From positions 1 to 46,605 of IMG/VR virus record IMGVR_UViG_3300036766_001049: 46,605 nucleotides of DNA. The stretch is one strand, 5' to 3'. This stretch comes from a virus. The notes under the pieces are model-generated. The model was not told the DNA's origin and ran no database searches. It saw only the letters and a program-made list of their open reading frames with translations. Of this stretch, positions 17,144-36,410 are shown piece after piece; the stretch's first letter is position 1, and the number at the start of each line of letters is the position of its first letter. The position numbers and the translations under genes are program-made.

Positions 17144-17344
17144 ATGAGGCGTGTTGACTTCCTTCTTCCCGAGGATTCCCTTAATTTCCTTAAATCACGC
17201 GAAGGAACACTTTCTGAACATATTAGATGGGCAATTGATCAATATATCCATAAATTAAGACAAGAAGAAACAAGACTCGCCCAAAATGCGAGTTCTTCGG
17301 CTTCTTTAAAAGGAGGTGACGATGGACAAACAACAAATAGTTGA
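17144..17344 (+). CDS. Ribbon-helix-helix-like regulator
   Basis: About 66 residues from 17144 (MRRVDFLLPEDSLNFLK); an ATG two codons earlier lies against the -10. VDFLLPEDSLNFLK is a ribbon-type strand and turn, and TLSEHIRWAIDQYIHKLRQE the following helices, as in CopG/Arc-like DNA-binding proteins. The C-terminal 25 residues are flexible. Being first in the glycan operon, it may repress its own promoter. The 3' end overlaps the next gene and contains its ribosome site. Confidence 0.6.
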   Translation: MRRVDFLLPEDSLNFLKSREGTLSEHIRWAIDQYIHKLRQEETRLAQNASSSASLKGGDDGQTTNS

Positions 17345-17594
17345 AGGGGAAATGTTGACACCTATTCCAAGGGAACAAGGTGAATCAATAACTATGGATT
17401 TTCCTGACGCTATACGCGAAGTTGTTAGTGGTAAAAAAGTAACTCGGATTGAATGGGCAAATACTGATTATGGTTTTGTGAAAGATGAATGGTTGACGAT
17501 TTCTAGGGATGGTAAATTTCATACATGGCTTATATCTCAAGGTGACATGGACGCAAATGATTGGATAGTGGTGATAGATGCAACAAAAAATTGA
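17322..17594 (+). CDS. DUF2829 family protein, Tad2-like Thoeris antagonist candidate
   Basis: 90 residues from the ATG at 17322, with AAAGGAGGTGA immediately upstream; a GTG at 17316 lies inside that site. Residues 26-85 match the DUF2829 pattern: MDFPDAIREVVSGKKVTR, then W, a WLTISRDGK strand, and WLISQGDMDANDW. Members called Tad2 bind and remove the cyclic ADP-ribose-type signal of the Thoeris defence system. DUF2829 proteins occur widely in phages and not all have been tested, so anti-defence function here is inferred. The N-terminal 25 residues are an extension compared with a typical member. Confidence 0.7.
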   Translation: MDKQQIVEGEMLTPIPREQGESITMDFPDAIREVVSGKKVTRIEWANTDYGFVKDEWLTISRDGKFHTWLISQGDMDANDWIVVIDATKN

Positions 17595-18459
17595 TTTAAC
17601 AGTTTGTATTCCTAATCGTAATTCACCTTTCACTGCTAAAACCATAGAAGATGTACTTAAAAATGCTGGTTGTAGTGTTGAAGTTATTGTGAATGTAGAT
17701 GAACAGTGGCCTGAACCACTTTCAGAGGATGAAAGAGTCCACTATATCCATCCAAGCGCCCCTGTGGGGCTTAGAGCGGGTGTTAATGCCTGTGTAGCGA
17801 TGGCAAAGGGTAAATACATCCTGAAAACAGACGATCATTGTGCTTTTGGAGAGAACTTTGGCAAAATCTTAATTGAAAATCATAAAGAGGATAACTGGGT
17901 GCAGATTCCAAGACGTTATGCATTGGATGCTGAAAACTGGCAGATTGAAGAACAAAACAATAATAAATACCCGGTTGACTATATGTATATTGATTTTCCG
18001 CGCAAAGGGAAAGATCATGATGATGGGATGCATGGAGTTCCTTGGAAAAGGGATAGGATAGAAGAGATAGATGATACTCCTAGTATGCAAGGTTCTTGTT
18101 ACTTTATGTTAAGAGATTATTTTTACAAGTTAGGATTAATGAGTGAAGAGGGATATGGACAATTCGCTCAAGAAGCTCAAGAGATAGGTTTTAAGACATG
18201 GTTAGGTGGCGGCGCTCTGAAAGTAAATAAAAAGACGTGGTATGCACATCTTCATAAGGGGAATAAATATGGGCGATTCTATAATTTTCCGGGTGGGACA
18301 GTAGAAGCATCGAGTTGGAGCGCTTCCCATTGGTTAAATGATGAAGAACCCAATATGGTTCATAAATTTGAGTGGTTTATAGATGAGAAGTTCCCAGGTA
18401 TGCCAACGTGGCCTTTGGATTGGAAAGAGCAAATAAAGGAGATGGGATGGACGAGCTAA
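17578..18459 (+). CDS. GT2-type glycosyltransferase
   Basis: 293 residues with a GT-A fold. LTVCIPNRNSPFTAKTIEDV is the nucleotide-sugar-binding start, VGLRAGVNACVAMAKGKY the middle helix, and KTDDHCAF (83-90) replaces the usual DxD metal site. SMQGSCYFM, WLGGGALKVNKKTWYAHLH and a Trp-rich end (MPTWPLDWKEQI) are shared with three other GT2 proteins of this island. It transfers a sugar from a nucleotide donor, probably in the cytoplasm; no membrane helix is seen. It overlaps both neighbours. Confidence 0.85.
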   Translation: MQQKIDLTVCIPNRNSPFTAKTIEDVLKNAGCSVEVIVNVDEQWPEPLSEDERVHYIHPSAPVGLRAGVNACVAMAKGKYILKTDDHCAFGENFGKILIENHKEDNWVQIPRRYALDAENWQIEEQNNNKYPVDYMYIDFPRKGKDHDDGMHGVPWKRDRIEEIDDTPSMQGSCYFMLRDYFYKLGLMSEEGYGQFAQEAQEIGFKTWLGGGALKVNKKTWYAHLHKGNKYGRFYNFPGGTVEASSWSASHWLNDEEPNMVHKFEWFIDEKFPGMPTWPLDWKEQIKEMGWTS

Positions 18460-18977
18460 GTAAATTGGGGATTAAATACGGCACAGACAAAATAGGCAAG
18501 CACAATTACTTGCCTGTCTATTATGACCTATTCAAAGATAGACGAAATACGGTCAAAAAAGTTCTTGAAATAGGTACGGCTGAAGGTGCAGGATTATTTA
18601 TGTTTAGAGAGTTCTTCCTTGCAGCGACAATTTACGGAGCTGAAATTGATCAAAAGCGTGTTGATCTTATGAAAGGTGAAGATCGAATAGAAGTATATAA
18701 GTGTGATCAGACAAATGAAAATGATCTTGATTCAATAATTGAAAAGATCGGTTCAGATATTGATTTTGTCATAGATGACGGTTCTCATAAACCAGAAGAT
18801 CAAGTATTTACCTGTTTGGAACTAATGCCTTTATTAAATAAAGAGGTTACTTATGTAATTGAGGATGTTGCTAAACCTGAAATTGCAGAATTTTTGCGTA
18901 ATAAATATGAATGTGCAGTAGTTGAAGTCGGTAAGCGCTATGATGACAGGTTAATAATAGTGAGGCACGAAAAATGA
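18447..18977 (+). CDS. Class I methyltransferase, sugar O-methyltransferase type
   Basis: 176 residues from the ATG at 18447 with AAAGGAG upstream. LGIKYGTDK, then VLEIGTAEGAG (SAM-binding loop), IYGAEIDQKRV and DFVIDDGSHKPEDQ are the marks of the mycinose/rhamnosyl O-methyltransferase-like group, where the DDGSH segment lies at the metal and sugar site. The same domain is fused to a GT2 in the gene at 19374. It probably methylates a hydroxyl of the phage glycan. It lies in a tightly overlapping operon. Confidence 0.8.
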   Translation: MDELSKLGIKYGTDKIGKHNYLPVYYDLFKDRRNTVKKVLEIGTAEGAGLFMFREFFLAATIYGAEIDQKRVDLMKGEDRIEVYKCDQTNENDLDSIIEKIGSDIDFVIDDGSHKPEDQVFTCLELMPLLNKEVTYVIEDVAKPEIAEFLRNKYECAVVEVGKRYDDRLIIVRHEK

Positions 18978-19387
18978 CAATCGGATTTACCTGTGGCACA
19001 TTCGACCTTTTTCATGTAGGGCATATTCTTATGCTAAAAGAGGCTAAAAGTGTCTGTGATTATCTAATTGTAGGGATTCAGACAAATCCTCAACTTGATA
19101 GAAAAAATAAAAGAAAACCTATTCAGTCTTTATTTGAAAGAATAGCACAAATAAAAGCTTGTAAATATGTTGATAGAATTGTTGTTTATGAAACTGAACA
19201 TGATCTAGAGGATTTATTAAATTTTATGGATATAGATATTAGAATAGTTGGAGAAGATCATGAGGGTAAATCAATAACAGGACAAGAAATTTGTAAAAAA
19301 AGAAATATACCAATTTATTACAACTCTAGAAAACATAATTTTTCAACAACAGAACTTATAGAAAGGATTAAAAATGGCAAAACTTAG
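18974..19387 (+). CDS. HIGH-type nucleotidyltransferase (sugar or glycerol phosphate)
   Basis: 137 residues. GTFDLFHVGH (8-17) is the HxGH-containing nucleotide-binding motif of cytidylyl/adenylyltransferases. FERIAQIKACKYVDRIVVYE and a late NFSTTELIERI complete the family pattern. In HldE-type enzymes the last motif is GYSTTxII, so the protein may activate heptose 1-phosphate. Glycerol 3-phosphate cytidylyltransferase (TagD type) is the main alternative. The presence of GmhA- and HddA-like genes nearby favours the heptose route. Overlaps: ATGA with the upstream methyltransferase, 14 bases with the downstream gene. Confidence 0.75.
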   Translation: MTIGFTCGTFDLFHVGHILMLKEAKSVCDYLIVGIQTNPQLDRKNKRKPIQSLFERIAQIKACKYVDRIVVYETEHDLEDLLNFMDIDIRIVGEDHEGKSITGQEICKKRNIPIYYNSRKHNFSTTELIERIKNGKT

Positions 19388-20843
19388 TATTTTAATTCCA
19401 TGCCGGAATGAACCCTATTTGAAAAAGATGGTAGATGACATCTTTGTAAAAGCTTCTGGTGAAATTGAAGTTATAGTTGTTTTAGATGGTTTAACGATAC
19501 ATCCACTACCAGATGAAAGGCCAAATTTGGTCTTTATCAAAAAACCAGTATCAGAAGGTTTAAGACCTGCTATCAATGATGCTGCCAAAATTGCGACAGG
19601 TAAATACATAATGAAAGCAGATGCTCATGTAGCATTTGCTTCCGGATTTGATGAAGAACTTCAAAAGGATTGTGAAGATAACTGGATTGTAATTCCGCGC
19701 CGTTACGATTTAGATCCTATTGAGTGGAAACCAATACCAAATACAGATATAGATTATTACTATTTAGGTTTCCCCTGGGGTAGACCGGATTTTATAATGT
19801 CTGATTTACGTTGGTTTACAAGAGCAATTGGGAGAAAAGATATTATGATTGACGATACTATGACTTTTGGAGGAAGTGTTTGGTTTACATCAAAAGATCA
19901 TTTTAATAATTTAGGTGGGATGAGTAGTGAAGGTTATGGCACGTTTAATTTAGAACAACATGAATTAGGATTAAAAACTTGGTTAGGCGGAGGACGTGTG
20001 GTAGTTAATAAGAATACTTGGTATGCCCATTTTGGGCAGGATTATCGTTTACGGCCATATCATAATACTACTGATTCTAGTATTAGTATGGGTGTAACCA
20101 TACAAGCAGGAATATGGTCAACTCATTATTGGATTGAGAATAAATGGAAGGATAGAATACATGATTTTGATTGGTTAGTTGAGAAATTTTGGCCTTTACC
20201 TACTCCGGGTCATCGTACTGGAAAAGAAAGACATACATGGCCTTTAAATTGGAGAGATTATTACGAAGGGAGAATTACAGAACTTTGTGGTTTAGCTAAT
20301 AAATACGGTTCTGACAAATGCCCACCGACTCATCAATATACTCCGCGTTATTTTGAAGTCTTAAAAGATAAACGGGATTTAATTAAAAAAGTATTGGAAA
20401 TTGGTGTGGGGAATCCGGAGACCATGACTCACATTGAAAATTATACAGTAGGAGCAAGCTTACGGATGTGGAGAGACTTTTTTCCAAATGCGCAAGTTTA
20501 TGGTGCTGATAATGATCCGGCAGTCATGTTCAAAGATGATCGGATTGAAACATTTTTGGTTGACCAAAGAAGTAAAAAGGATTTAGAAAACTTAATTGCA
20601 AAAATAGGCAATGATATTGACTTAGTAATTGATGATGGTTCTCATCTCTTAGAAGACCAAATATTTAGTTGTAAAACATTGATGCCGCTACTTAAAAAAG
20701 ATGTAATTTACGTTGTTGAGGATATTGCAGATCATAATGCTTTAATGCAGGGACTCAGTGATTATGACTGCGAATACAAAATGTTTAAAGAAAAAAGCGG
20801 TTTTACTGATAGATTAGTTTTTATAAAGCATAAAAATGAGTAA
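19374..20843 (+). CDS. GT2 glycosyltransferase fused to a sugar methyltransferase
   Basis: 489 residues in two domains. Residues 1-295 are GT2: LSILIPCRNEPYLKKMVDD, EGLRPAINDAAKIATGKY, KADAH (81-85), GGSVWFTSKDHF and WLGGGRVVVNKNTWYAHFG. Residues 300-489 are a methyltransferase like the gene at 18447: LANKYGSDKCPPTHQYTPRY, VLEIGVG, VYGADNDPAV and DLVIDDGSHLLEDQIFS. Fusion suggests that a sugar is added and methylated on the same complex. It overlaps both neighbours and uses the same AT-rich codons. Confidence 0.85.
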   Translation: MAKLSILIPCRNEPYLKKMVDDIFVKASGEIEVIVVLDGLTIHPLPDERPNLVFIKKPVSEGLRPAINDAAKIATGKYIMKADAHVAFASGFDEELQKDCEDNWIVIPRRYDLDPIEWKPIPNTDIDYYYLGFPWGRPDFIMSDLRWFTRAIGRKDIMIDDTMTFGGSVWFTSKDHFNNLGGMSSEGYGTFNLEQHELGLKTWLGGGRVVVNKNTWYAHFGQDYRLRPYHNTTDSSISMGVTIQAGIWSTHYWIENKWKDRIHDFDWLVEKFWPLPTPGHRTGKERHTWPLNWRDYYEGRITELCGLANKYGSDKCPPTHQYTPRYFEVLKDKRDLIKKVLEIGVGNPETMTHIENYTVGASLRMWRDFFPNAQVYGADNDPAVMFKDDRIETFLVDQRSKKDLENLIAKIGNDIDLVIDDGSHLLEDQIFSCKTLMPLLKKDVIYVVEDIADHNALMQGLSDYDCEYKMFKEKSGFTDRLVFIKHKNE

Positions 20844-21705
20844 AGTATCAATTATTATTCCGGCTAGGGCTGAGAAGTTTGAGAATCTTTCAAGAACTAT
20901 TGAAAGTATACGCCAAAATGCAACTGGTGAATATGAAATTATTATTGGTTTTGATGGATTACCACATTTTCAATTCTTCGATGCAAAAGTTATTAATTTC
21001 CCAAATGTTGTTGGTATTAAAACTAATATCAATGCTATGTGTGCAATGACTACTGGTAAATATATTTACAAATCAGATGCTCACTGTTCTTTTGGTAAAG
21101 GCTTTGATGAGATCTTACAAGCTGATATGCAAGATGATTGGATTGTTATGCCTCGTTTTTATATTTTAGATGGTAAAACTTGGCAGTGGCAGGATGAGCG
21201 GTTTTATGATTATTTCTATCTTTCCTGCCCCTTCACAGACCCTAGAGGGTTTAGATTTAAAGCCGGTGGGCATTGGCCGGAAATGACACAAGAACGTCTT
21301 ACAAGTCATCCCACAGTCGATGAGACACCACAGATACACGGTTCTGGATGGTTTATGACAAAAGACAGGTTTTTTGAACTTGGTGGTTTTCCGAATATTG
21401 ATCCTTATGGTCACGCGCAAGAACCTATATGGCTTGCTTTGAAAAATTGGTTGATAGGTGGCAAAGTTATGGTCAACAAAAAGACATGGTACGCTCATCT
21501 GCATCAACAGGGGAATAAACGTGGATACCAGATGGACAAAGAACAGGAGAACAAGAGTTACGATATTGCTGCCCGACATTTTGTAAGAGATAAAGGTAAT
21601 TATTTACACAATTTTGAGTGGTTTGTTGAGAAATTTTATCCAATGCCAACGTGGAATCCAAATTGGAAAGAACAACTTATTAATTGGCAGAAGGAGAACG
21701 CTTAA
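20836..21705 (+). CDS. GT2-type glycosyltransferase
   Basis: 289 residues, third member of the local GT2 set. VSIIIPARAEKFENLSRTI, KSDAHCSF (79-86), HGSGWFMTKDRFFELGG, WLIGGKVMVNKKTWYAHLHQ and the NPNWKEQLINWQ end are clear. The DxD motif is again DAH. Its 3' end is overlapped for 26 bases by the HNH endonuclease gene on the other strand. Acceptor and donor unknown. Confidence 0.85.
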   Translation: MSKVSIIIPARAEKFENLSRTIESIRQNATGEYEIIIGFDGLPHFQFFDAKVINFPNVVGIKTNINAMCAMTTGKYIYKSDAHCSFGKGFDEILQADMQDDWIVMPRFYILDGKTWQWQDERFYDYFYLSCPFTDPRGFRFKAGGHWPEMTQERLTSHPTVDETPQIHGSGWFMTKDRFFELGGFPNIDPYGHAQEPIWLALKNWLIGGKVMVNKKTWYAHLHQQGNKRGYQMDKEQENKSYDIAARHFVRDKGNYLHNFEWFVEKFYPMPTWNPNWKEQLINWQKENA

Positions 21706-22132
21706 TATGTTTTCTAATACGTCTTTTTTCAGTTTTCTCATAAATACGCATACATTCTTTGCATTTTCGATGGCCTCTATTGTCAGAGCTAAGTGGATGT
21801 CCATATTTGCAAAGAGTTTTTCTAGCATTTATAGCAGTTACACCATTTCCTTTGAGAGTATTTTCCTTATGACTTATAAGTTGAAGATGATTGGGGTTAA
21901 CACAAGCTCTGTTATTGCAAATATGGTCAAGTTCTTTATCAGCAAAACTTTTCCATTGAGGTATCTCACCATTCTCCCAAATATAGAGAAGTCTATAAAC
22001 TCGCCATATTTTGCCTCTAAACGAAATTCTTCCATAACCATTATCCAATTTTCTAGTCCAATTCCAGCATTTAGTACTTGGATCAACAGAAATATACGAA
22101 AAAATACGTTTAGCTTCTTTTTGTGTGAACAT
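21680..22132 (-). CDS. HNH homing endonuclease inserted in the glycan operon
   Basis: 150 residues from the ATG at 22132. CWNWTRKLDNGYGRISFRGK is the usual N-terminal part of HNH_3-type phage endonucleases. LDHICNNRACVNPNHLQLIS holds the HNH core, and CKYGHPLSSDNRGHRKCKEC is a C-terminal zinc finger. It lies on the opposite strand to 20 surrounding genes, separates GT2 from the GmhA-like gene and has its own promoter, as expected for a free-standing mobile gene. An ATG-like codon at 22207 would extend the frame but lies upstream of the promoter. Confidence 0.85.
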   Translation of the reverse strand: MFTQKEAKRIFSYISVDPSTKCWNWTRKLDNGYGRISFRGKIWRVYRLLYIWENGEIPQWKSFADKELDHICNNRACVNPNHLQLISHKENTLKGNGVTAINARKTLCKYGHPLSSDNRGHRKCKECMRIYEKTEKRRIRKHIKRSPSAN

Positions 22133-22159
22133 ACGCAAATTATACCATATTATTTGCGT
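22133..22159 (-). promoter_or_regulatory. Palindrome around an extended -10 promoter of the HNH gene
   Basis: ACGCAAAT (22133-22140) and ATTTGCGT (22152-22159) are perfect inverted repeats. On the minus strand they enclose TGGTATAAT, an extended -10, with TATAAT six bases before the ATG. A protein bound to the palindrome would block the promoter. The message would be leaderless. Confidence 0.6.
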
Positions 22160-22179: not shown

Positions 22180-22683
22180 ATGAAGACTTTAGCGCATAAG
22201 AAGGCATTAGATATTTTAATTGATTGTTACAAGCGAAAAGGTGTGGTATTTACAATGGGTTGTGGCGGATCAGCTTCAACTGCTTCCCATTTTGCTGCTG
22301 ATTTAGCTAAAACGGTGGGTGGATTTAAAACAATTTCACTGGTAGATAATACTCCTTTAGTCAGCGCTATAACTAATGACTTAGGATGGGATAGAGTATT
22401 TGATTTCCAACTAGATTCTTGGCTTACAAAAAATGATGTTTTAGTTGGATTTTCCGTACATGGTGGCAGTGATGATTGGTCACAAAATCTGGTTAGGGCT
22501 ATGAAACTCGCCAAGGAAAGAAAAGCTAAGATTATTGGGTTTACAGGTAGAAGTGGTGGAAAAATGAAAGAGATGGCTGATGCTTGTCTTACCGCTCCAG
22601 GTGATACATGGGATACAGTAGAAGGGGTACATAGTGTTCTTGCTCATGACGTAATATTTGACTTAAAGGAGAGGTTAAAATGA
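22180..22683 (+). CDS. gmhA: Phosphoheptose isomerase-like SIS protein (GmhA type)
   Basis: 167 residues. GCGGSASTASHFAADL (27-42) matches the GmhA signature GxGGSAxxxxHFAxEL. GFSVHGGSDDWSQNLVRAM is the second SIS sugar-phosphate loop, and EGVHSVLAHDVIF contains the late catalytic-region His. GmhA converts sedoheptulose 7-phosphate to heptose 7-phosphate. GGAGGG lies before the ATG. The next gene, a transaldolase that could supply sedoheptulose 7-phosphate, overlaps by ATGA. Another SIS sugar isomerase is the alternative. Confidence 0.75.
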   Translation: MKTLAHKKALDILIDCYKRKGVVFTMGCGGSASTASHFAADLAKTVGGFKTISLVDNTPLVSAITNDLGWDRVFDFQLDSWLTKNDVLVGFSVHGGSDDWSQNLVRAMKLAKERKAKIIGFTGRSGGKMKEMADACLTAPGDTWDTVEGVHSVLAHDVIFDLKERLK

Positions 22684-23375
22684 GTGGTATATTTTATGAC
22701 TCTGCAAATCTTGTTGATTTTAAAAAGTGGTTTGATGCCGGGATACTTGGAGGGGTAACAACTAACCCAGTAATTTTACAAAAAGAGGGAGTATTTAATA
22801 TACCGGAACATATTTCAAAAATGATTGATATTTGTGGTATAAATTTTCCGATATCAATTGAAATTCCAGATTCTACTTGGTCTATAGGGCAAATGGTTGA
22901 TCTTGCACGTTTATATAATAAAAAATTTCCTACTAATGCTGTGATTAAAATCCCTATGGATTGTAGGGATTCACAAAAATCATTTGAAGTTATGAATATT
23001 TTAAATTATGAAGGTTTACAAGTTAATGCTACTTTAGGGTTAACAACTGGACAGTTAATTGGGGCTATGGAAACCCATGCTACTTATATCAGTCTGTTTT
23101 GGGGAAGATGTGAGGAGACAGGGGGCATTGGGGCTGAAAAAACTTTAACTACAGTATTAAAATACCGCGAAGTACATAATTTAGATTCAAAGATAATTAT
23201 TGGCAGTATACGAAATGTAAATCAAATTGATACTGCTTTTCTACTGGGAGCAGATATAGTCACCATCCCGCCAAAATTATTAGAAGAATGGATGTTTACA
23301 AAAAGAGGTGTAGAAACAGCAGACCAGTTTAACAATGCCTATCTGGAAATTAAGGATAAAGTGACTTTAATATGA
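22680..23375 (+). CDS. Transaldolase, FSA/TalC type
   Basis: 231 residues, usual length for the small transaldolase/fructose-6-phosphate aldolase group. IFYDSANLVDFKKW and GVTTNPVILQKEG form the start, NAVIKIPM holds the Schiff-base Lys (about residue 90), and IIIGSIRNVNQIDTAFLLGA and DIVTIPPKLLEE complete the barrel. It can make sedoheptulose 7-phosphate from fructose 6-phosphate. Similar genes occur in cyanophages for carbon metabolism, but here the gene is coupled to a GmhA-like isomerase, which suggests heptose supply. Confidence 0.85.
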   Translation: MSGIFYDSANLVDFKKWFDAGILGGVTTNPVILQKEGVFNIPEHISKMIDICGINFPISIEIPDSTWSIGQMVDLARLYNKKFPTNAVIKIPMDCRDSQKSFEVMNILNYEGLQVNATLGLTTGQLIGAMETHATYISLFWGRCEETGGIGAEKTLTTVLKYREVHNLDSKIIIGSIRNVNQIDTAFLLGADIVTIPPKLLEEWMFTKRGVETADQFNNAYLEIKDKVTLI

Positions 23376-24019
23376 ATACTTACGAATATATTGTAAATAA
23401 ATACAAGATTAATGTTGGGCATCAACATTTAATTGATGTTGAAGGAATGGTTGGAAGTGTTGCGCTTTCAAAGTTGTTTGCAGAACTTAATTTTAACTTA
23501 GGTGCTGAAATTGGGGTTGATAAAGGTGAATTTTCAGAAGTTCTTTGTAAAGATAATCCAAACTTACACCTTTATAGTGTTGATCCTTGGATGAAAATTG
23601 CCTATGAAGATGGTAATCCGTATCGGGATCAACAAGAAAATTTTGATTTAGGTTATGAAGAATCAACTAAAAGACTTGCGCCATATAATTGCACTATCAT
23701 GCGAAAAACTTCGATGGAAGCCCTTGCAGATTTTGAAGATAAATCACTTGATTTTGTCTATATTGACGCCAACCATGACTTCCCCAATTTTACAATGGAT
23801 TTACATTATTGGATAAAGAAAGTAAGGCCGGGAGGAATTATTTCAGGACATGATTATGCTTATTTTTCATATAGTAAATTTAATCATGTTAAAAGGGCAT
23901 TAATCGCTTATGCTCGTTCTTACAGAATGATTCCTCTCTTCGCTGTTATGTACGACGTAAATGGATTGAAACGGGATCATTTCAGGAGTTGGTTTTATGT
24001 TATACCCGATAACGCTTGA
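23372..24019 (+). CDS. Class I methyltransferase (Methyltransf_24 type)
   Basis: 215 residues. GAEIGVDKGEFSEVL is the SAM loop, LHLYSVDPWMK the acidic strand, LDFVYIDANHDFPNFTMDL the metal-site-like IDANH, and VRPGGIISGHDY the following strand. These are marks of the small-molecule O-methyltransferase group common in polysaccharide loci. The next gene is a close relative and overlaps by 23 bases, so the pair likely arose by duplication and modifies different positions. Confidence 0.8.
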   Translation: MNTYEYIVNKYKINVGHQHLIDVEGMVGSVALSKLFAELNFNLGAEIGVDKGEFSEVLCKDNPNLHLYSVDPWMKIAYEDGNPYRDQQENFDLGYEESTKRLAPYNCTIMRKTSMEALADFEDKSLDFVYIDANHDFPNFTMDLHYWIKKVRPGGIISGHDYAYFSYSKFNHVKRALIAYARSYRMIPLFAVMYDVNGLKRDHFRSWFYVIPDNA

Positions 24020-24560
24020 ACATTTCGGTAGACGCACTGCTTTAATAGATCTTTTTAGAGATCTTAATTTTAAGGTAGGTGTTGAAATTGGGACAGATCA
24101 TGGTGATTATGCCAGAAATTTGTGTGCTGGGATTCCAGATTTAAAGTTGTACTGTATTGATCCTTGGGTTGCTTATACAGAAGGTAATGATGTTAAGAGC
24201 CAACAAGATGTAGAAGTAATCTACCAACACGCTCAAAAGAAACTTGAACCGTTTAATTGCCATATTATTAGGGAAACAAGTATGGATGCGCTTAAATATT
24301 TCACACCTAACAGTATGGATTTTGTGTTTATTGACGGAAATCATGAGTATGACCATGTTTTAGAAGATATTACGGCATGGGAGAAGATTGTTAGGCCGGG
24401 CGGGATTATTTGTGGACATGATTATAAAGTAGATCCAGTTAATAAATATGGAGTTATAGAGGCAGTTCAAAAATATACAACTGATAACAGGATATGGCCT
24501 TGGTTTATTCTAAGTGCTGGTGGTCGATTAGTTGATTGTTGGATGTGGAGGAAAATATGA
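23997..24560 (+). CDS. Class I methyltransferase, paralogue of the upstream gene
   Basis: 187 residues. GVEIGTDHGDYARNL, LYCIDPWVAYTEG, MDFVFIDGNHEYDHVLEDI and VRPGGIICGHDY align motif by motif with the preceding protein, which starts about 30 residues earlier. A methyltransferase of sugars or other small hydroxyl compounds is likely. It overlaps the next gene as ATGA and shares the operon. Confidence 0.8.
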   Translation: MLYPITLEHFGRRTALIDLFRDLNFKVGVEIGTDHGDYARNLCAGIPDLKLYCIDPWVAYTEGNDVKSQQDVEVIYQHAQKKLEPFNCHIIRETSMDALKYFTPNSMDFVFIDGNHEYDHVLEDITAWEKIVRPGGIICGHDYKVDPVNKYGVIEAVQKYTTDNRIWPWFILSAGGRLVDCWMWRKI

Positions 24561-25414
24561 TAAGTATATTTGCAAAACGGGCTTTTTTGAATACTAATCC
24601 TTATAGCGCTTTTGAATCAAAAGAAAAGTCATATAAAGGGTATGGGCATCTTCAGCGTGTATCTTCAATGATTCGGGCAGATCAAATAGCTAATTATCTT
24701 GGAGCAAAACTTAATCCCGAAAACGGATATGAAAATGATATATGTATTTACGTTAAACCAATGGTCAGAAAAGATGAGGATTTTAAATTTGAAGGTAAAA
24801 GATCTTATTTAGATATTGTAGATGGTCATAATTTAGGACAATTAATGTTAAAACATCCGGAAGTCGGAGTTATCGTCTGTTCACAAGCAGATTATGAAAT
24901 TATGTCAAAAGAACTACCTAACAAAGTAGTTTTAATTCCTCAACACCATTGTAATTTTGAAAGAATTAAAAGAAATTTAAATGGAATTAAAACAGTCGGA
25001 GTTATTGGTACAAAAAGTGCATTTGTATTTCTTCCTACAGGATTGAAAGAGGCATTGGCGAATAGGGATATAAAACTTTTGGAATATTCAAATTTTTTCT
25101 CTAGAGAAGATATTATAGATTTTTACTCAAAAATTGATATTCAAATTGTTTGGAGACCATATAAAATGAGACTTTCAAATCCATTAAAATTAGTAAATGC
25201 TGCTTCTTTTGGAATACCTACTTTTGCTCTTGATGAAAATACTTTTAAAGAGATTCAATGGTATGCCCCGGTTGAAAATTTGAATCAATTTTTAGATAAA
25301 TTAGATGCGTTTATGGCATTTCCACAACTTTATGAAGATTTTTCCGAACATTGTTTTAAAGAAGCTGAAAAATATCATATAGATAATATTACAAAGTTAT
25401 ATAAAAATTTATGA
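24557..25414 (+). CDS. Putative GT-B-type glycosyltransferase
   Basis: 285 residues from the ATG at 24557 (GGAGGAAAAT upstream; the frame is open further up to a TTG). The N-terminal part contains SYLDIVDGHNLGQLM and VIVCSQADYEIM. The C-terminal part has RLSNPLKLVNAASFGIPTFA, close in style to the nucleotide-sugar site of GT4-like enzymes (KLxNAxAxGxP). It is shorter than typical GT-B proteins (350-400), so one domain may be reduced. The context of sugar genes supports the call. Confidence 0.6.
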   Translation: MISIFAKRAFLNTNPYSAFESKEKSYKGYGHLQRVSSMIRADQIANYLGAKLNPENGYENDICIYVKPMVRKDEDFKFEGKRSYLDIVDGHNLGQLMLKHPEVGVIVCSQADYEIMSKELPNKVVLIPQHHCNFERIKRNLNGIKTVGVIGTKSAFVFLPTGLKEALANRDIKLLEYSNFFSREDIIDFYSKIDIQIVWRPYKMRLSNPLKLVNAASFGIPTFALDENTFKEIQWYAPVENLNQFLDKLDAFMAFPQLYEDFSEHCFKEAEKYHIDNITKLYKNL

Positions 25415-27343: not shown

Positions 27344-27656
27344 ATTAATAAAAATACTTTGTGTTTGTAATAAAGGTGAATGTCGAAGTGTTGGGGCTAG
27401 AATGTGTCTTAATGAACGCGGGTATACAAATGTAATCGCTATCGGCGTAACTAATACATCAATGAAAACATTGGCTATGCTTTGGAATTGGGCTGATTTA
27501 ATTTTGTTGGCAAAACCTACACATAATGTATTTTTTCCTATATCAGATAAAGTTTATACAAAATTTACCATTGGTGAAGATAGGTGGCAAGACCCTTATA
27601 ACAAAGAATTACATAAAATTATAAATAAAAAATTAGATTTGGTAGGGTTAAAATGA
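27336..27656 (+). CDS. Low-molecular-weight phosphatase-like protein
   Basis: 106 residues, short for the family (about 150). CNKGECRSVGA contains the C(X)5R phosphate loop with Cys11 and Arg17, and RWQDPYNKEL supplies the Asp-Pro loop (Asp86) that gives the general acid. LMW phosphatases act on phosphotyrosine or small phosphates. The heptose route needs a 1,7-bisphosphate phosphatase, and no HAD-type GmhB is visible, so this protein is a candidate replacement. That role is inference. Overlaps by eight and four bases with the neighbours. Confidence 0.6.
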   Translation: MDKLIKILCVCNKGECRSVGARMCLNERGYTNVIAIGVTNTSMKTLAMLWNWADLILLAKPTHNVFFPISDKVYTKFTIGEDRWQDPYNKELHKIINKKLDLVGLK

Positions 27657-28423
27657 AAGTAGGAATTGTCGGATATGGCTGGGTAGGAAAAGCGATGCAT
27701 AAATTATTTCCGGAAGCATTGATTCATGACTCTGTTCCTACTTTTGCATCAAGATGGACAAAAGAACAGATTAATGAGTGTGATATTGCTTTTGTTTGTG
27801 TCCCTACGCCAGCAATTGATGAAGGCAAACTTGATACTTCTATTGTTGAGGAAGTAATTGTGTGGTGCGAATGTCCTTTTCTTGTTATTCGTTCAACTGT
27901 AAATCCGGGCGATTGTGACAAGTGGATTAAAAAATATAATAAGAAGATTTTGTACCAACCGGAATTTTTAGGGGAGACACCAAATCATCCACTCTTAGAT
28001 CCCAAAACAAGGCAGTGGTTGGTAATTGGTGGGCAAGATTATAAAACAAGAAGAAAGTTAATCGAACTCTATACAACAGTCTATAATGCCAATATAACAA
28101 TCAGACAACTTTCTCTTTTGGAAGCTGAGATTGTAAAACTTTCGGAGAATAGAGCAATTTCGTTTAAGGTTGCACAAATTCAAGAGCTATACGATGTATG
28201 CGAAAAAGCAGATGTAGATTTTTATGTTATCCGCGAGGCGGTTTATGGTGATGATTCCCGTTTTGATCTGTGGTGGTCGTTCATATTTCCAGATAAAAGA
28301 GGATTTCAGAGTAAGTGTTTGCCAAAAGACGTTTATGCTTGGTGTGCATGGGCAGAAAGTCTAGGTTATAAACCAGAAATTACAAGAGCAATTTTGGAGA
28401 AAAATAAAGAATGGATACGATAG
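27653..28423 (+). CDS. UDP-glucose/GDP-mannose dehydrogenase-like protein, shortened
   Basis: 256 residues; usual enzymes have about 430. GIVGYGWVGKAM is the NAD fold, VIRSTVNPGDCDKW and YQPEFLGETPNHP are typical of UGD, AEIVKLSENRAISFKVAQIQ is the central dimer helix, and CLPKDVYAW carries the catalytic Cys222. The C-terminal nucleotide-sugar domain is missing. It may oxidise a smaller sugar substrate or work with a partner. No frame break is visible, and the stop overlaps the next gene by 13 bases. Confidence 0.75.
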   Translation: MKVGIVGYGWVGKAMHKLFPEALIHDSVPTFASRWTKEQINECDIAFVCVPTPAIDEGKLDTSIVEEVIVWCECPFLVIRSTVNPGDCDKWIKKYNKKILYQPEFLGETPNHPLLDPKTRQWLVIGGQDYKTRRKLIELYTTVYNANITIRQLSLLEAEIVKLSENRAISFKVAQIQELYDVCEKADVDFYVIREAVYGDDSRFDLWWSFIFPDKRGFQSKCLPKDVYAWCAWAESLGYKPEITRAILEKNKEWIR

Positions 28424-30067: not shown

Positions 30068-31165
30068 ATGACTTTACTTGATAATCTTAGTGCTTATTGG
30101 AAACTTGAAGATTTAGTTGATTCTACGGGCAATGAAACGGCACTAACAAATAATGCCGTAGTTACTTTTATTGCAGGTAAAATTAATAATGCTGCCCATT
30201 TTGTCGCCGCTTCTTCCCAATATTTAAGTCACGCCTCAACCGCTAATTTACAAACAGGTGATATAGCTTGGACTATGAATCTTTGGGTTAAATTAACAGA
30301 TGAAACTGCTAATCAAGTCTTTATTTATAAAGGTGATGCTAATAACAGTACTTTTGAGTATGTAATTTATTATCAGTCCTCTGGTGACCGTTTTAAATTT
30401 AATGCAGCGGCAACTACAGTTACGGCTGACAATTTTGGCTCTCCAACAGCGGGTGTCTGGTATATGATAACTGTCCAACACGCAGGGGCGGGTGGCGCAA
30501 TCACTATTCAAGTTAATAATGGTACGGCGAATTCTGTGGCGGGCGTTACGGGAGTGTCTAATGTAACACCGTTTCAAATAGGAGTTGATGGTTTAACTAT
30601 ACCCCATGCCTACATGAATGGCGACATTGACGAGGTAGGTTTCTGGAAACGGGTATTGACGGCTGCCGAAATTACTCAGCTTTACAATAGTGGGGCAGGT
30701 CTTCCTTATGAACAATTTGGTGGTAGTCCTTCTCTTTCATTCTCAGCCAGTCTTTCACCTTCAGCATCTTTAAGTCCATCAGCCAGTGCATCAGCTTCTG
30801 CCTCAGCGTCTATTAGTAAATCTGCTTCCGCCAGTCTTTCTCCAAGCGCCAGCGCCTCAGCATCTGAATCAAAGTCCCTCAGTCCGTCAGCCAGCGCCTC
30901 AGCATCTGAATCAAAGTCCCTCAGTCCGTCAGCCAGCGCCAGTCCATCAGAAAGCCCTTCATTTAGTCCTAGCGTCTCAGCATCGTCATCAGTTAGCGCT
31001 TCTGCCAGTGCCTCTTTAAGTCCCTCACGTTCACTATCCCCTTCCGCTAGTAGTTCAGCTTCTCTATCCCCCAGCGCTTCTGCCTCTCCGTCCCCGGCAG
31101 AATATGTAAATAAATATTCAATAGTAGGGAATACCTATACAGATAAATATACGAGTACGCTATGA
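30068..31165 (+). CDS. Fibre protein: LamG-like domain plus Ser-rich repeats
   Basis: 365 residues. Residues 5-215 are a concanavalin/LamG-like beta sandwich: [59 protein letters not shown] and [20 protein letters not shown], a standard carbohydrate-binding fold. Residues 219-345 are Ser/Ala/Pro repeats. The end, [20 protein letters not shown], is shared with the next fibre gene. Likely a tail or head fibre that binds host glycan. It may itself be glycosylated by the island upstream. Confidence 0.75.
30724..31100. repeat. Ser-rich coding repeat with a recent 42-bp duplication
   Basis: Low-complexity Ser/Ala/Pro coding DNA. A unit beginning AGCGCCTCAGCATCTGAATC and spanning 42 bp occurs twice in tandem, exactly repeated, from about 30851 to 30934, which shows recent expansion. 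Confidence 0.8.
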
Positions 31166-31641
31166 ACTCTGTTAATCCTTGTACCAAATATCTAACCAAT
31201 GGCTGTTGGATATATATGGTTCCTCAATTTAAACCGGAAAATGTTCTTGTTTTGGGTTTTGCTGGGGGAACAGTTGCGGGACTTATTAAATTAATTTACG
31301 GAGATATTCCTATTACAGCAGTTGATATTAAAGAGTGTATAGATAATTATGGAGTAAATTTAATAAAAGCCGATGCTGAAGAGTATATTAAAACTGCTCC
31401 TAAATTTGATGTAGTTATAGTTGACCTTTTTAAAGATTTTAAGATGTGTGATTGTGTACTAACAAATGAATTTGTAGCGGATTTAAGTAAGATTTCTAAT
31501 TATATTATATTAAATACTTTAAAAGAACCTGATTTAAGAGCTTATAGAAACTTAAATAGATATGGTTCAAATAAACCTAATAGGGGAGCAAATAGAATAT
31601 ATTACTTTGGAGTTAAACAGTATGACAATCTAATTATATGA
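31162..31641 (+). CDS. Spermidine-synthase-like Rossmann methyltransferase-fold protein
   Basis: 159 residues. [20 protein letters not shown] with [26 protein letters not shown] and [13 protein letters not shown] follow the spermidine-synthase-like subgroup of the methyltransferase fold. It is short and lacks the N-terminal beta domain of true spermidine synthases. It sits between two fibre genes, overlapping both as ATGA, so it may modify a fibre or its glycan. The Cys residues near KMCDCVL are unexplained. Confidence 0.65.
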
Positions 31642-34600
31642 AATTAATAGCTTTTATTGTAAATTTCTTAACTCTTAGTATAGGTTCTTTTATTAATCTA
31701 TTTATAAATATAGAAAAATGGAAACCTATTCATCTATGTTGGTGGTTTGAGAAGAATAATCTACCAATTCCTAAATATTTTATTGGGTTACAATCTCCTT
31801 CGCTTTCTCCAAGTGCATCTGCTTCAGCCAGTGCTTCTAAATCTTTAAGCCCATCGGCTTCTGAGTCTAAAAGCGCATCTAAGTCTCTTTCTCCTTCGGC
31901 TTCTTTAAGTCCGTCAGCTTCTAAGAGTCCTTCTGCTTCCTTGAGTCCATCGGCTAGCGCTTCTCCCAGCATAGCAGCCGCAGAAGCTAAATTTTTAGAA
32001 CCTGGCGGAGATGCCGATTTCGGATTTAATCTGTGGGCTTCTACAGTTGGCTCTCCGACAATAGTTACAGATTTTGTTAACGGCAGTCATATTAAATCCA
32101 TAAAGTTCGCTCCCAACGTCAGTCAAAAAGTTGTAACCGCTTTTGGAATTTTAGCTGATTCGGGCGCCAGGTTTAGCGTTTGGATATATTTAGTTGCCTT
32201 ACCCAGCGCTACGGCAACCATTGTCCAATTCCAAGACGGGGTGGGAAGCACCTCTTTTCAAATTAGGCTTACTAGCGCCGGTGTAATAAATCTAGCCGAT
32301 GCTTCCCTTAACCAGATAGGGGCTAACGGAGCAACCCTTTCAACGGCAATCTGGTACAGAATTTCGGTAGCCTACACCATCACTTCGACAACTGTTAACA
32401 GAATTGAATTATATGTTAATGGGACTTCTAGTATTTCTGTAACCAACGGGACAGTCTCTAAAACAGGGACAAGCAGATTCCTGATGGGCAATAATGATCC
32501 TGACTCTTCACTTGATTTTCGTTCGAGCGACCATTATGTAGACAATAGCTCTTCCCTTCTTGATCCAGGAAATATTTGGGTTACAGCTAAAAGACCTAAT
32601 GCAAATGGAACAACAAATGGATTTACTACTCAAATAGGTAGTGGTGGTTCAGGATATGGTACAGGACATTCACCTCAAGTAAATGAACGGGCTTTAAGTA
32701 CTGTTAACGGGTGGGAATTAAATACTTCTTCTGCTGTAACTGAAGAATATTCTATAGAAAATGCTGCAACAGGGGATATAAACCTGACTGGGGCAACAAT
32801 TGTTGATTTTATGGGTTGGGTTTATGCAAAAGCTACTGCTGCTAGAACAGGAAAAATAATTGTTGCAGGAGTTAGTTCAAATATTGCTCTTACAAGTGCA
32901 GCAGGAATGTTTACCAAGATGGCTAATTCCGTTACTTATCCAGCTGGAAGTACTGATATAGGAATAATAAGCCAAGCAGCTAGTGATACATATAGTTTAT
33001 ATGAAGCAGGAATTATTGTAGCTTATGTTCCTGTTGCTGGATCATCCTCAGTTAGTCCAAGCGTCTCTCCCAGTGCTAGCGAAAGTAAGTCTTTAAGTCC
33101 TTCAACTTCTCAAAGCCCCTCAGGCTCCCAATCCCCCTCAGCTAGTGAATCCAAATCTGCCAGTAAAAGTGCAAGTGCTTCGGAGTCAAAAAGCGAGAGC
33201 AAATCTCAAAGCCCATCTGGTAGTTTAAGTCCTTCTGCTTCAGTTTCAGCCTCTGAATCTAAAAGCCAAAGCCCTTCAGCTAGTTTATCGCCTAGTGCCA
33301 GCCAATCACCGTCAGGCTCTCAATCTCCATCAGCCTCAGAGTCTAAAAGCGCTTCTAAATCAGTATCAGCCTCTGAGTCTAAATCAGAAAGTAAATCTCA
33401 ATCTCCTTCTGGCTCTTTATCCCCTTCTGGGTCTCTTTCTCCAAGCGCTAGTCAATCCCCCTCAGGTAGTCAAAGCCCTAGTGGTTCAGAATCTAAGTCC
33501 CAAAGCCCCTCAGCTAGTGAATCTAAATCAGAATCCAAATCAGAATCTAAATCACAGAGTCCGTCAGGAAGCCTCTCCCCTAGTGCTAGTGCTTCTGCTT
33601 CAGAGTCTAAGTCTCAATCCCCTAGTGGGTCATTGAGTCCTTCTGGTTCACTAAGTCCATCAGGAAGTGAGTCTAAATCACAATCCCCTTCTGCCAGTGA
33701 AAGTAAAAGCTTGTCTCCTTCCGCAAGTTTAAGTCCAAGTGCGAGTCTTTCCCCTTCAGCATCAGAGAGTAAAAGTCAATCACCGTCAGGTTCACAAAGC
33801 CCAAGCGCTTCAGTAAGCGCCTCTCAATCTCCGAGTGCTAGTGAGAGCAAGTCTCTTTCGCCTAGCGCTAGTCAGTCACCTTCGGCAAGTTTAAGCCCTA
33901 GCGCTTCAGAATCTAAATCTCAAAGCCCTTCAGCCTCCCTTAGTCCCTCGGCAAGTGCATCTAAAAGTTTGTCTCCAAGTGCATCTCTTTCCCCAAGCGC
34001 TTCAGAGTCAAAGTCTCTTTCTCCGTCTGCTAGTTTGAGTCCTTCATCCAGCCAATCTGCAAGTCAAAGCCCATCTACTAGTGAATCTAAATCACAATCG
34101 CCATCTGCTAGCTTAAGTCCTAGTGCATCGTTGTCACCCTCAGCGAGTTTGTCTCCTTCAGCATCCCTTAGTCCATCAGCAAGTGCAAGTGCCTCACTCA
34201 GCCCATCAGCTAGTGGTAGTGCATCTTTGTCCCCCAGTGCTTCTCTAAGCCCCTCGGCTTCACTTAGCCCTAGCGCCTCAGCAAGTAAATCTTTAAGTCC
34301 TAGCGCAAGCGCTTCACCATCAGGAGGGAGTGAGTCGCCTTCACAAAGTCCGAGCGCCAGTGAATCTAAATCTTTAAGCCCGTCAGCTTCTTCTAGTGCT
34401 TCAGAGTCTAAATCTGCTTCGGCAAGTGAGTCCAAGTCCGCCAGTGCTAGTATGTCAGCGTCAGAAAGCAAAAGTGCTTCGGCTTCGGAATCTAAATCAT
34501 TAAGTCCGTCCGCGAGTGCAAGCGCTTCTTTAAGTCCATCAGCAAGTGAAAGTGCGTCAGCATCTGCTAGTGCTTCAAAATCGGCTAGCGCATCTTTAAG

Positions 34601-34775
34601 CCCCTCAGCTTCACCTTCAAAATCTGCCAGTGCTTCGCCTTCCCGATCACCTATAGAATACTCCGATAAGTATTCAGTAACAGGAAATTCATTTGGTGAT
34701 AAGTATTCGGATGTTGGCAATGACTGGACTTGGAAATATCGGGAGTGGGATGCTTTACCAAGTTCACCGGAATAG
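31638..34775 (+). CDS. Giant fibre protein: LamG-like domains and about 530-residue Ser-rich region
   Basis: 1045 residues. Residues 3-24 are hydrophobic ([20 protein letters not shown]) and could be a membrane helix or a hydrophobic virion anchor. A first Ser repeat (about 52-112) is followed by a LamG-like sandwich (about 115-315) and a second beta domain (320-465, [21 protein letters not shown]). Residues about 470-1000 are nearly pure Ser/Pro/Ala with Lys, Glu, Gln and Leu, in blocks such as [17 protein letters not shown]. The end [19 protein letters not shown] and a Trp-rich tail resemble the fibre before. Over 200 Ser residues in one stretch make it the best acceptor candidate for O-glycosylation. 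Confidence 0.75.
33048..34640. repeat. 1.6-kb Ser/Pro/Ala-coding repeat region
   Basis: Imperfect repeats of 12-18 bp coding for SPSAS, SESKS, SQSPS and SLSPS. Serine is coded by AGT, AGC, TCA, TCT, TCC and TCG in mixed order, so the protein composition has been kept by selection rather than by fresh DNA slippage alone. Confidence 0.9.
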
Positions 34776-34801
34776 ACATAAAATAAAATTGTAAGTTAAG
34801 C
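34773..34801 (+). promoter_or_regulatory. Weak possible promoter
   Basis: TAGACA (34773-34778), 17 bases, TTAAGC (34796-34801), seven bases before the ATG at 34809. The match is modest. No ribosome site precedes the ATG. Confidence 0.3.
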
Positions 34802-34808
34802 TAAAATT

Positions 34809-36410
34809 ATGAAGACATTAGAAGATAAATTTTTTGAAGGCGGAATTTCCAGTTTTTCAGATCGCGGTTCTCGCGGCGCTGCTAAATTTACCAGCGGTAT
34901 CGATATTCGCAAATCTGTTGATACTCTTTCTTGTCAACAAGCTTTGAAAGAAGAAGGTCTTATAGGAGTAAGTCATTCAAGTTCACCATCTCTTTCACCA
35001 AGTCCTTCACTTTCACCAAGTGGAAGCGCTAGTCCATCAATTAGTCCTACAACCTCATCTTCGGCTTCACTATCGCCTTCGGGGTCAGCATCAAGAAGTG
35101 CTTCTAATAGTCCAAGTCCTTCAGGTTCAGCTTCACCATCTGGTTCTGAAAGTGCTTCACCTTCAATTTCAGCCGGACTTAATAATGTTTATACTGATCT
35201 TGTTTTGTTTTGGGTTAAAGCGACGGACGGGGCAACGTATGGGTTCGGAAATGCAGGGCATATTTACAGAAGATATTCAGACGGATTTACAAAAATGGTC
35301 TATACGGATCCAAATGGATCAATCAAAGGAGCAGTGGAAAAACCTTCAAGCGCCGGAGGCACTTACCTTCAATGGGCGACTGACACAAAAGTAATGCAGA
35401 AACCGCTTCCCGGTGCTGGCAATTGGACTGATACAACTATAGTAGCTGAAAACTTAACAGGCGCCGATTGGCATACTATGAAGCAAGTTGGCGGGGCAAA
35501 CTATATTGCCAATGGTTCTAAATTAGCACTTGTTGGTTATGACGATTCTTGGACAAACGAAGCTCTTGATTTGATTCCGGGTAATATTGCCAAAACTTTA
35601 CTTGAACGGAACGGTCGCGCAGTTATTGGAACCCACAAAGCCGGTTACCCAAACAAAGGGGTAAACGGCATGATTGATAGTGAAGTGCCACTTTCGCAAA
35701 TTGGGGATGATGGGGAACTCTTCTTTGCCAATTTTACAGATTCCATGCCAATTAAAAGGTTTCCCGGCGGTGGCAGGGTTAATCCAGGCGGGGTGGCAAA
35801 CGAAGTAGACCAAATTGAGATATTCGATTGGGTTTTTGGAGCAGACTCTTGGGTAGATAAACAGACAATGGGGAATATGTCACTTTGGGGAGTATTTGAT
35901 GCAGATTCAGGCAAGAACGGCATATATACCTACGGCAGGCGTAACAAAGAGCAACTTTTCACCATGAACCTAGAATACACTATGGATGTAGATGAGATAG
36001 GCGCGGTAGCGACGGTAGAAGGCGTGACTATTGCAAGTTATAGGGATGGTACTGATTTTGGTGTTCGGGCAGTAGATAGTACTACAAAAGCTCAGGGCAT
36101 ATGGGAGTCACTTGAATTTAGGATGCCTGTTAAAAAAGCTGAGCAAATTACAAAAGTTGATTATGCTGAAGTGTTTATGGATGAACTACCAGTTGGCTGT
36201 AGTGTCTATTTTTACTATCAGAAAAATAAATCAGGCACTTGGGTACAAGCATACACGGCAGATGGAAATGCTGCTTACACTACAACAGGTGGTAAAAAAG
36301 CAGTTTTTAGAATTGGGGAAGAAATGGATATATATGAAAGACGGATTTTAATGGTTCCTAGTAGCAATACTACACCAGAAATTTTCAGAATACGATCATA
36401 TTTTGTTTAA
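34809..36410 (+). CDS. Large virion protein with Ser-rich linker and beta-propeller-like part
   Basis: 533 residues. Residues 1-53 (DKFFEGGISSFSDRGSRGAA) form a short head, 54-122 a Ser/Pro-rich linker, and 125-533 a beta-rich body. The body has repeated motifs such as GATYGFGNAGHIYRRYSDGF, GGTYLQWATDTKVM and KNGIYTYGRRNKEQL, followed by a jelly-roll-like end (IWESLEFRMPVKKAEQ, GCSVYFYYQKNKSGTWVQAY). It suits a tail hub or spike protein. The linker is the fourth Ser-rich segment in this genome. Confidence 0.65.
   Translation: MKTLEDKFFEGGISSFSDRGSRGAAKFTSGIDIRKSVDTLSCQQALKEEGLIGVSHSSSPSLSPSPSLSPSGSASPSISPTTSSSASLSPSGSASRSASNSPSPSGSASPSGSESASPSISAGLNNVYTDLVLFWVKATDGATYGFGNAGHIYRRYSDGFTKMVYTDPNGSIKGAVEKPSSAGGTYLQWATDTKVMQKPLPGAGNWTDTTIVAENLTGADWHTMKQVGGANYIANGSKLALVGYDDSWTNEALDLIPGNIAKTLLERNGRAVIGTHKAGYPNKGVNGMIDSEVPLSQIGDDGELFFANFTDSMPIKRFPGGGRVNPGGVANEVDQIEIFDWVFGADSWVDKQTMGNMSLWGVFDADSGKNGIYTYGRRNKEQLFTMNLEYTMDVDEIGAVATVEGVTIASYRDGTDFGVRAVDSTTKAQGIWESLEFRMPVKKAEQITKVDYAEVFMDELPVGCSVYFYYQKNKSGTWVQAYTADGNAAYTTTGGKKAVFRIGEEMDIYERRILMVPSSNTTPEIFRIRSYFV

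What the first reader, a model, noticed from the sequence alone, without database searches (positions are those of the whole stretch)
17144..36410. Candidate phage-encoded mucin-like glycosylation system
A continuous operon of sugar-activating enzymes, four related GT2 transferases, a GT-B-like transferase and about five methyltransferase-fold domains is followed directly by virion proteins with extremely long Ser/Ala/Pro regions. The regions occur in four virion-type genes, one of them before the island. Ser-rich, Pro-containing segments are the usual substrate for dense O-glycans. The simplest reading is that the phage builds its own activated and methylated sugars and coats its fibres with them. 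A glycan aimed at the host surface is the alternative.
Basis: partly seen in the sequence, partly recalled or inferred. Interest (0 to 1): 0.9.

Follow-up and report, generated by a model that had tools for sequence, protein, structure and literature searches.

The report
Phage enzymes that sugar-coat its virion
This uncultured phage, probably one that infects ultra-small Patescibacteria, carries its own relatives of the animal enzymes that start mucin glycosylation, next to virion proteins with long strictly alternating serine tracts, so it most likely builds a mucin-like sugar coat on its own particle; hundreds of related phages carry the same transferases and nearly all of those examined carry the same pairing.

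Summary
Four virion-side genes carry strict (Ser-X)n tracts, with unbroken runs up to 428 aa. Next to them lies an island with four paralogous GT2-type transferases, O-methyltransferases and heptose-type sugar enzymes. The transferases are not generic GT2. Their profile and an AlphaFold model (pLDDT 94) match eukaryotic polypeptide GalNAc-transferases (GT27, the mucin initiators) above everything else solved. The GT27 metal triad DxH...His is essentially invariant in 260 relatives. The pairing with Ser-X proteins holds in both directions: 69 of 80 transferase-bearing phage contigs also encode them (median gap to the next Ser-X gene 44 bp where measured), and 31 of 38 large Ser-X records found without using the transferase carry it (controls 1 of 15). 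In the P22-gp10/T7-gp12-like nozzle protein the tract sits at a fixed insertion site and is missing from related phages. Sporadic Patescibacteria chromosomes carry the same pair, sometimes with TatC; phage versions lack TatC. Best reading: cytoplasmic O-glycosylation of virion Ser-X tracts by phage GT27-like enzymes, with methylated glycans. The phage's own sugar supply (heptose module) is an accessory of this clade. It works like streptococcal SRR glycoproteins but is not a member. Chemistry is inferred.

The parts
14682..15791 (+). major capsid protein
   Evidence: PHROG 267 major head protein, E 2.7e-9
15860..16798 (+). virion-side protein encoded just after the capsid gene; N-terminal domain plus (SX)n tail
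   Evidence: (SX)n at aa 132-311; N-terminal homologues in 17 of 80 related phage loci, 16 of which also hold the MCP
16253..16792 (+). (Ser-X)n tract of the 15860 protein
   Evidence: 180-aa strict run; shuffled maximum 32
17578..18459 (+). GT27-like glycosyltransferase a
   Evidence: PF00535; member of alignment A2, whose profile hits GalNAc-Ts
18408..18977 (+). MycE-like sugar O-methyltransferase
   Evidence: 3ssm E 7e-12, 8ia9 E 5e-9
18974..19387 (+). nucleotidyltransferase, RfaE domain II / cytidylyltransferase-like
   Evidence: PF01467; TIGR02199 below cut-off; 3elb/1coz
19374..20843 (+). GT27-like glycosyltransferase b fused to a MycE-like methyltransferase domain
   Evidence: PF00535, A1/A2; C-terminal similarity to the 18408 protein seen in sequence
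20836..21705 (+). GT27-like glycosyltransferase c
   Evidence: PF00535, A2
22180..22683 (+). phosphoheptose isomerase (GmhA-like SIS)
   Evidence: 1tk9 E 6e-22; TIGR00441, below curated cut-off
22680..23375 (+). transaldolase / fructose-6-phosphate aldolase-type enzyme, possible source of sedoheptulose-7-phosphate
   Evidence: PF00923 E 5.7e-28
23372..24019 (+). Methyltransf_24 O-methyltransferase
   Evidence: PF13578; homologues in 61 of 80 phage and 37 of 47 genome loci
23997..24560 (+). Methyltransf_24 O-methyltransferase
   Evidence: PF13578; homologues in 61 of 80 phage and 38 of 47 genome loci
24536..25414 (+). possible GT-B transferase, unconfirmed
   Evidence: no family match; homologues in 18 of 80 phage loci
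25411..26370 (+). HddA-like heptose-phosphate GHMP kinase
   Evidence: 3k85, 4n3o, E <= 9e-32; NF049969 best, below cut-off
26387..27343 (+). NAD-dependent sugar epimerase/dehydratase
   Evidence: PF01370 E 1.9e-51
27653..28423 (+). short UDP-glucose/GDP-mannose dehydrogenase-like protein
   Evidence: PF00984, PF03721
28411..30045 (+). GT27-like glycosyltransferase d with a second C-terminal domain; the most conserved enzyme, usually just upstream of the Ser-X gene
   Evidence: AF2 pLDDT 94.4; top 50 Foldseek PDB hits all polypeptide GalNAc-Ts
30068..31165 (+). LamG-domain virion-side fibre candidate with (SX)n tract
   Evidence: PF13385 E 1.5e-16; 124-aa SX run
30725..31096 (+). (Ser-X)n tract of the 30068 protein
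31162..31641 (+). possible methyltransferase-fold protein, unconfirmed
   Evidence: no significant family match
31638..34775 (+). giant fibre candidate: short SX tract, LamG domain, long SX tract
   Evidence: Laminin_G_3 E 3.8e-7; SX runs of 60, 428 and 108 aa
33042..34652 (+). long (Ser-X)n tract of the 31638 protein
   Evidence: 428-aa strict run followed by 108 aa
34809..36410 (+). tail nozzle protein (P22 gp10 / Sf6 gp8 / T7 gp12-like) with (SX)n insertion
   Evidence: AF2 model and Foldseek hits 8eap, 9jg6, 8u10, 7sg7, 7boy
34971..35174 (+). (Ser-X)n insertion in the nozzle protein; modelled as disordered
   Evidence: present at the same site in 10 aligned homologues, absent in 6 (A4); residues 54-125 pLDDT < 50
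38088..38813 (+). tail tubular protein A-like, marks the podovirus tail module
   Evidence: by position, gene order as in MW202510; homologues in 14 of 80 loci; no PHROG match

Best explanation
The island is a phage-encoded O-glycosylation system. GT27-like GT-A transferases (a-d) use a metal-bound nucleotide sugar to attach sugars to serines of the (Ser-X)n tracts in the infected cell's cytoplasm, before or during virion assembly. Paralogous transferases, including the second domain of enzyme d, extend or vary the glycan, and MycE-like and Methyltransf_24 enzymes O-methylate it. In this clade a heptose-type module (transaldolase, GmhA, HddA-like kinase, nucleotidyltransferase, epimerase) adds an own sugar supply. 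The modified tracts form stiff sugar-coated stalks on the tail nozzle, on LamG-domain fibre candidates and on a protein encoded after the capsid gene. Shown by computation: the anatomy, GT27-like fold and metal triad, two-way linkage, modular insertion into a virion protein. Inferred: serine O-linkage, sugar identity, cytoplasmic timing and biological purpose (shielding, stalk rigidity or host-surface mimicry).
For: GT27 relation: the A2 profile's best PDB matches are polypeptide GalNAc-Ts, E 5e-13, over the whole domain; model pLDDT 94.4; top 50 Foldseek hits all GalNAc-T; an unrelated GT2 control hits chondroitin synthase and others, no GalNAc-T. Metal triad D85 260/260, H87 258/260, H256 252/252, aligned with Asp209/His211/His344 of GalNAc-T1 (ligands from PMC4202792). 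Linkage: 68 of 80 GT contigs have SX proteins within the stretch, one more in the full record; median 44 bp from enzyme d to the next SX gene in the 41 loci measured. Reverse: 31 of 38 SX records >= 30 kb carry the GT, 1 of 15 controls does, Fisher p 6e-7. Relatives by terminase: G001 and G007 have both, G006 and MW202510 neither. SX inserted in a nozzle protein at one site. No TatC in phage loci, TatC in about a quarter of cellular loci, as expected if the phage product stays in the cytoplasm. Ser fixed in spite of mixed TCN/AGY codons.
Against: No glycan, peptide or activity data exist. GT-A/GT2 enzymes can use many acceptors, and fold does not fix acceptor or donor. About six small or incomplete contigs (L049, L057, L079, L094, L095, L096) carry the GT beside phage genes with no SX protein seen. 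Seven of 38 large SX records lack this GT; some of them carry other PF00535 transferases, others none detected. The ricin-like lectin domain of GT27 is missing. Contigs found through shared GT patterns are not independent of one another.
Confidence: 0.8

Rival explanations
1. The island makes or modifies a host-surface glycan (superinfection exclusion or receptor change); the Ser-X tracts are unrelated flexible stalks.
For: Heptose, epimerase and UDP-sugar dehydrogenase genes are typical of surface polysaccharide pathways; phage GT2 genes often serve that role (general knowledge).
Against: No polymerase, flippase or lipid-carrier transferase was seen among the island ORFs. The constant part is the GT27-like enzyme, not the polysaccharide genes. 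The SX gene follows enzyme d at a median of 44 bp, SX and GT are present or absent together in terminase relatives, and the closest solved enzymes all glycosylate polypeptides.
Confidence: 0.08
2. The transferases glycosylate virion proteins, but not mainly the Ser-X tracts, which act as bare stalks.
For: About six contigs have the GT beside phage genes without SX; known phage glycoproteins such as mycobacteriophage capsids are not known as Ser-X proteins (literature lead, PMC11256854 abstract).
Against: Strong two-way co-occurrence; alternating Ser is the established acceptor layout of SRR glycoproteins (PMC6973325).
Confidence: 0.09
3. Linkage without function: the GT island is cargo that hitch-hikes beside fibre genes.
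For: The island varies in content and carries an HNH homing endonuclease.
Against: Pairing recurs in divergent phages and in Patescibacteria chromosomes; the metal triad is conserved under wide divergence.
Confidence: 0.03

Closest known systems
Serine-rich repeat glycoproteins (SRRP: GspB, Fap1, PsrP) with their accessory-Sec glycosylation loci in Gram-positive bacteria
   Same: Tracts of serine alternating with another residue, and a cluster of several transferases next to the substrate gene (PMC6973325).
   Different: The transferases are GT27-like GT-A enzymes, with no GtfA/GtfB seen; no accessory Sec genes seen; the carrier is a virion protein. Cellular relatives in Patescibacteria have TatC nearby in about a quarter of loci instead.
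Polypeptide GalNAc-transferases, GT27 (animals, Toxoplasma), initiators of mucin-type O-glycosylation
   Same: Best sequence-profile and fold match; DxH...His metal triad; WG....E.....W..GG...H.FR stretch in enzyme d.
   Different: Prokaryotic virus; no ricin-like lectin domain, instead a second unidentified domain in enzyme d; Pfam assigns PF00535; donor and stereochemistry unknown.
Mycobacteriophage virion glycosylation
   Same: Phage-encoded transferases thought to decorate the particle (PMC11256854 abstract).
   Different: The two transferases tested (c and d) had no match in 50,697 deposited phage records; substrate type differs.
MycE/TylE macrolide sugar O-methyltransferases
   Same: Sequence match of the 18408 protein.
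   Different: Here part of a phage island; the acceptor is presumably a protein-linked sugar.
HddA/GmhA heptose activation pathway (capsule, S-layer, LPS)
   Same: Isomerase, kinase and nucleotidyltransferase relatives.
   Different: No recognised GmhB phosphatase; all below NCBI curated cut-offs; accessory only.

Membership tests
GT27 polypeptide GalNAc-transferases | GT-A catalytic domain most similar to GalNAc-Ts | tested here: met
   control
GT27 polypeptide GalNAc-transferases | DxH plus third His metal ligands | tested here: met
   ligands from PMC4202792
GT27 polypeptide GalNAc-transferases | C-terminal ricin-type lectin domain | tested here: not met
   C-terminal half of 28411 has no Pfam match at E 5; enzymes a and c end after the catalytic domain
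GT27 polypeptide GalNAc-transferases | Retaining transfer of GalNAc from UDP-GalNAc to Ser/Thr | not testable with these tools
   needs an enzyme assay
SRRP glycoprotein loci | Repeats of serine alternating with another residue | tested here: met
SRRP glycoprotein loci | Two or more transferases encoded beside the substrate | tested here: met
SRRP glycoprotein loci | SecA2/SecY2 accessory secretion genes and long signal peptide on the substrate | tested here: not met
   none recognised among the window ORFs that were read or scanned; substrate includes a tail nozzle protein
SRRP glycoprotein loci | GtfA/GtfB priming O-GlcNAc transferase | tested here: inconclusive
   the only GT-B candidate, 24536, has no family match
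Known phage virion glycosylation systems | Phage-encoded GT with glycan on virion protein shown by mass or antibody | not testable with these tools
   uncultured phage

The most novel reading that the evidence does not exclude
Phages and some chromosomes of Patescibacteria hold a true prokaryotic counterpart of mucin-type O-glycosylation: GT27-like enzymes that put alpha-linked, often methylated sugars densely on (Ser-X)n proteins, exported by Tat in cells and mounted on virions in phages, exchanged repeatedly between the two.
Probability: 0.5. Interest if true: 0.92.

Novelty: new variant of a known kind. Interest (0 to 1): 0.84.

Why it matters
Mucin-type initiation by GT27 enzymes is described in the papers read here for animals and protozoa; a large viral and Patescibacteria family with the same fold and metal site, paired with its likely substrate, would put this chemistry into prokaryotes. 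It gives a testable enzyme-substrate pair, suggests a role for the long Ser-X proteins of uncultured phages, and gives a handle on phages of Patescibacteria, about which little is known. None of the 50,697 deposited phage records matched the two transferases tested, so culture-based work has missed it.

Tried and rejected
Generic GT2 reading: rejected because the profile and fold favour GT27 and a control GT2 does not. + ORF 21614-22183: spurious, overlaps a minus-strand HNH gene. 31162 as methyltransferase and 24536 as GT-B: not confirmed. SX search by DNA pattern in the GT contigs without SX covered TCN codons only and was weak, so full records were read instead; this added one positive, G288. 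Patescibacteria-wide prevalence: only 3 of 192 genomes, one of them the query centre, so it is not a general Patescibacteria trait. Literature searches for a description of this pairing found none in the open-access library; subscription papers and preprints are not covered. PHROG search of the tail and fibre proteins gave nothing useful.
Full report
What the window is. The 46.6 kb record is an uncultured virus record with a podovirus-type plan: terminase 9470, portal 11229, capsid 14682, tail genes 34809-38813 and endolysin 44575 (gene order as in MW202510). The portal and tail-tubular assignments rest on position and relatives, not on a family match in the window itself. The terminase has relatives at 67-82% identity in IMG/VR and about 50% in deposited Manatee Spring podoviruses.

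The Ser-rich regions. Four proteins (15860, 30068, 31638, 34809) carry tracts in which every second residue is serine. The longest unbroken runs are 180, 124, 428 and 40 residues; shuffling the same composition never exceeds 32 (28 for the shortest). Serine is written with both TCN and AGY codons, which cannot interconvert by one silent change, so the alternation is maintained at protein level. X is mostly Ala, Pro, Leu, Lys, Glu, Gln or Gly. This is the layout of streptococcal SRR glycoproteins, described as serine alternating with other residues (PMC6973325), rather than a general Ser/Ala/Pro-rich tract.

They sit on virion proteins. The 34809 protein models as a beta-rich fold (pLDDT 76.5, the SX segment 54-125 disordered). 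Its best solved matches are P22 gp10, Sf6 gp8, cyanophage and T7 gp12 nozzle proteins. In an alignment of 17 relatives the SX segment is present at one fixed site in 11 sequences (the window's included) and missing in 6, among them those of G006 and G007. It is therefore a modular insertion in a tail protein. 30068 and 31638 carry LamG domains; 15860 follows the capsid gene, and its N-terminal domain recurs in 17 of 80 related loci.

The enzymes. The four GT2 proteins are paralogues. A profile of nine such proteins has polypeptide GalNAc-transferases as its best solved relatives, E 5e-13 over the whole catalytic domain; other GT2 structures match only the N-terminal third. The AlphaFold model of 28411 (71 natural relatives, pLDDT 94.4) has only GalNAc-Ts among its 50 best PDB matches. 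Their metal ligands, Asp209/His211/His344 in GalNAc-T1 (PMC4202792), align with D85, H87 and H256, which are kept in 260/260, 258/260 and 252/252 family members (8 more have a gap at the last site). An unrelated phage GT2 used as control does not match GalNAc-Ts. The C-terminal lectin domain of GT27 is absent, so I call them GT27-like, not members.

Two-way linkage. Searching IMG/VR with the GT alignment gave at least 560 relatives; of the best 80 contigs, 68 hold an SX protein in the fetched stretch and one more in the full record. In 41 loci the next SX gene starts a median of 44 bp after enzyme d. Conversely, contigs found by an SX DNA pattern alone carry the GT in 31 of 38 records of at least 30 kb, against 1 of 15 pattern matches that lack a long SX protein (a weak partial hit), Fisher p 6e-7. 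Terminase relatives G001 and G007 have both features, G006 and MW202510 have neither. Of the 11 GT contigs without SX, several end right at the GT, as expected if repeats break assembly, but about six have room and show none.

Core and accessory. Homologues of the GT are in 80 of 80 loci (by construction of the search), the second domain of enzyme d in 78, the two Methyltransf_24 proteins in 61 each, the UDP-sugar dehydrogenase in 35, GmhA and GHMP kinase in 14 each (most loci shared), transaldolase in 2. The heptose-type pathway is thus a clade accessory, and most such phages would use host sugar nucleotides. The 18408 methyltransferase matches MycE and demethylmacrocin sugar O-methyltransferases, fitting methylation of a sugar.

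Hosts and cellular relatives. Of 47 genome-collection loci nearly all are Patescibacteria MAGs, one in a contig titled as a chromosome. Many carry giant SX proteins beside the GT. TatC (Pfam E 1e-41 in the one tested) lies in about a quarter of these loci and in none of the phage loci. A draft tree nests several cellular groups among phage sequences, suggesting repeated exchange. Only 3 of 192 sampled genomes of the phylum carry it. A Patescibacteria host for this phage is likely but rests on binning and gene kinship.

Mechanism. Most likely the phage modifies Ser-X serines in the cytoplasm of the infected cell, extends and methylates the glycans, and assembles sugar-coated stalks on tail and head. 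Missing TatC fits a product that never needs export. Sugar identity, linkage and purpose are inferred.

Novelty. Phage glycoproteins, SRR glycoproteins and GT27 are each known; this combination was not found in the open-access library and the two transferases tested have no match in deposited phage genomes. I class it as a new variant of a known kind.

Noticed in passing
17316-17594 (+): Protein with a Tad2-like (Thoeris anti-defence 2) domain, Pfam PF11195 E 3.6e-10, directly upstream of the first GT; homologues in 19 of 80 related loci.
   Followed up: no
21680-22207 (-): HNH homing endonuclease gene on the opposite strand inside the sugar island, between GT c and GmhA.
   Followed up: partly
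3206-4051 (-), repeat 3371-3578: Gene with 17 copies of a 12-base repeat coding for degenerate [12 protein letters not shown]-type repeats.
   Followed up: no
C-termini of 30068-31165 and 31638-34775: Short shared motif EYxxKYSxxGNxYxDKYS after the SX tract; found in 13 of 118 complete SX ORFs, one of them a doubtful match. Possibly an attachment or folding tag.
   Followed up: partly
28411-30045, residues 125-142: Cys-rich insertion (C125, C139xxC142), conserved in about half of the GT family members, looks like a zinc ribbon.
   Followed up: no
L260, L265, L245: Patescibacteria chromosomal loci with GT27-like enzyme, giant Ser-X protein and TatC side by side: a candidate dedicated export route.
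   Followed up: partly
L049, L095, L096: Phage contigs with the GT27-like transferase beside virion-type genes but no Ser-X protein; a different acceptor is possible.
   Followed up: no
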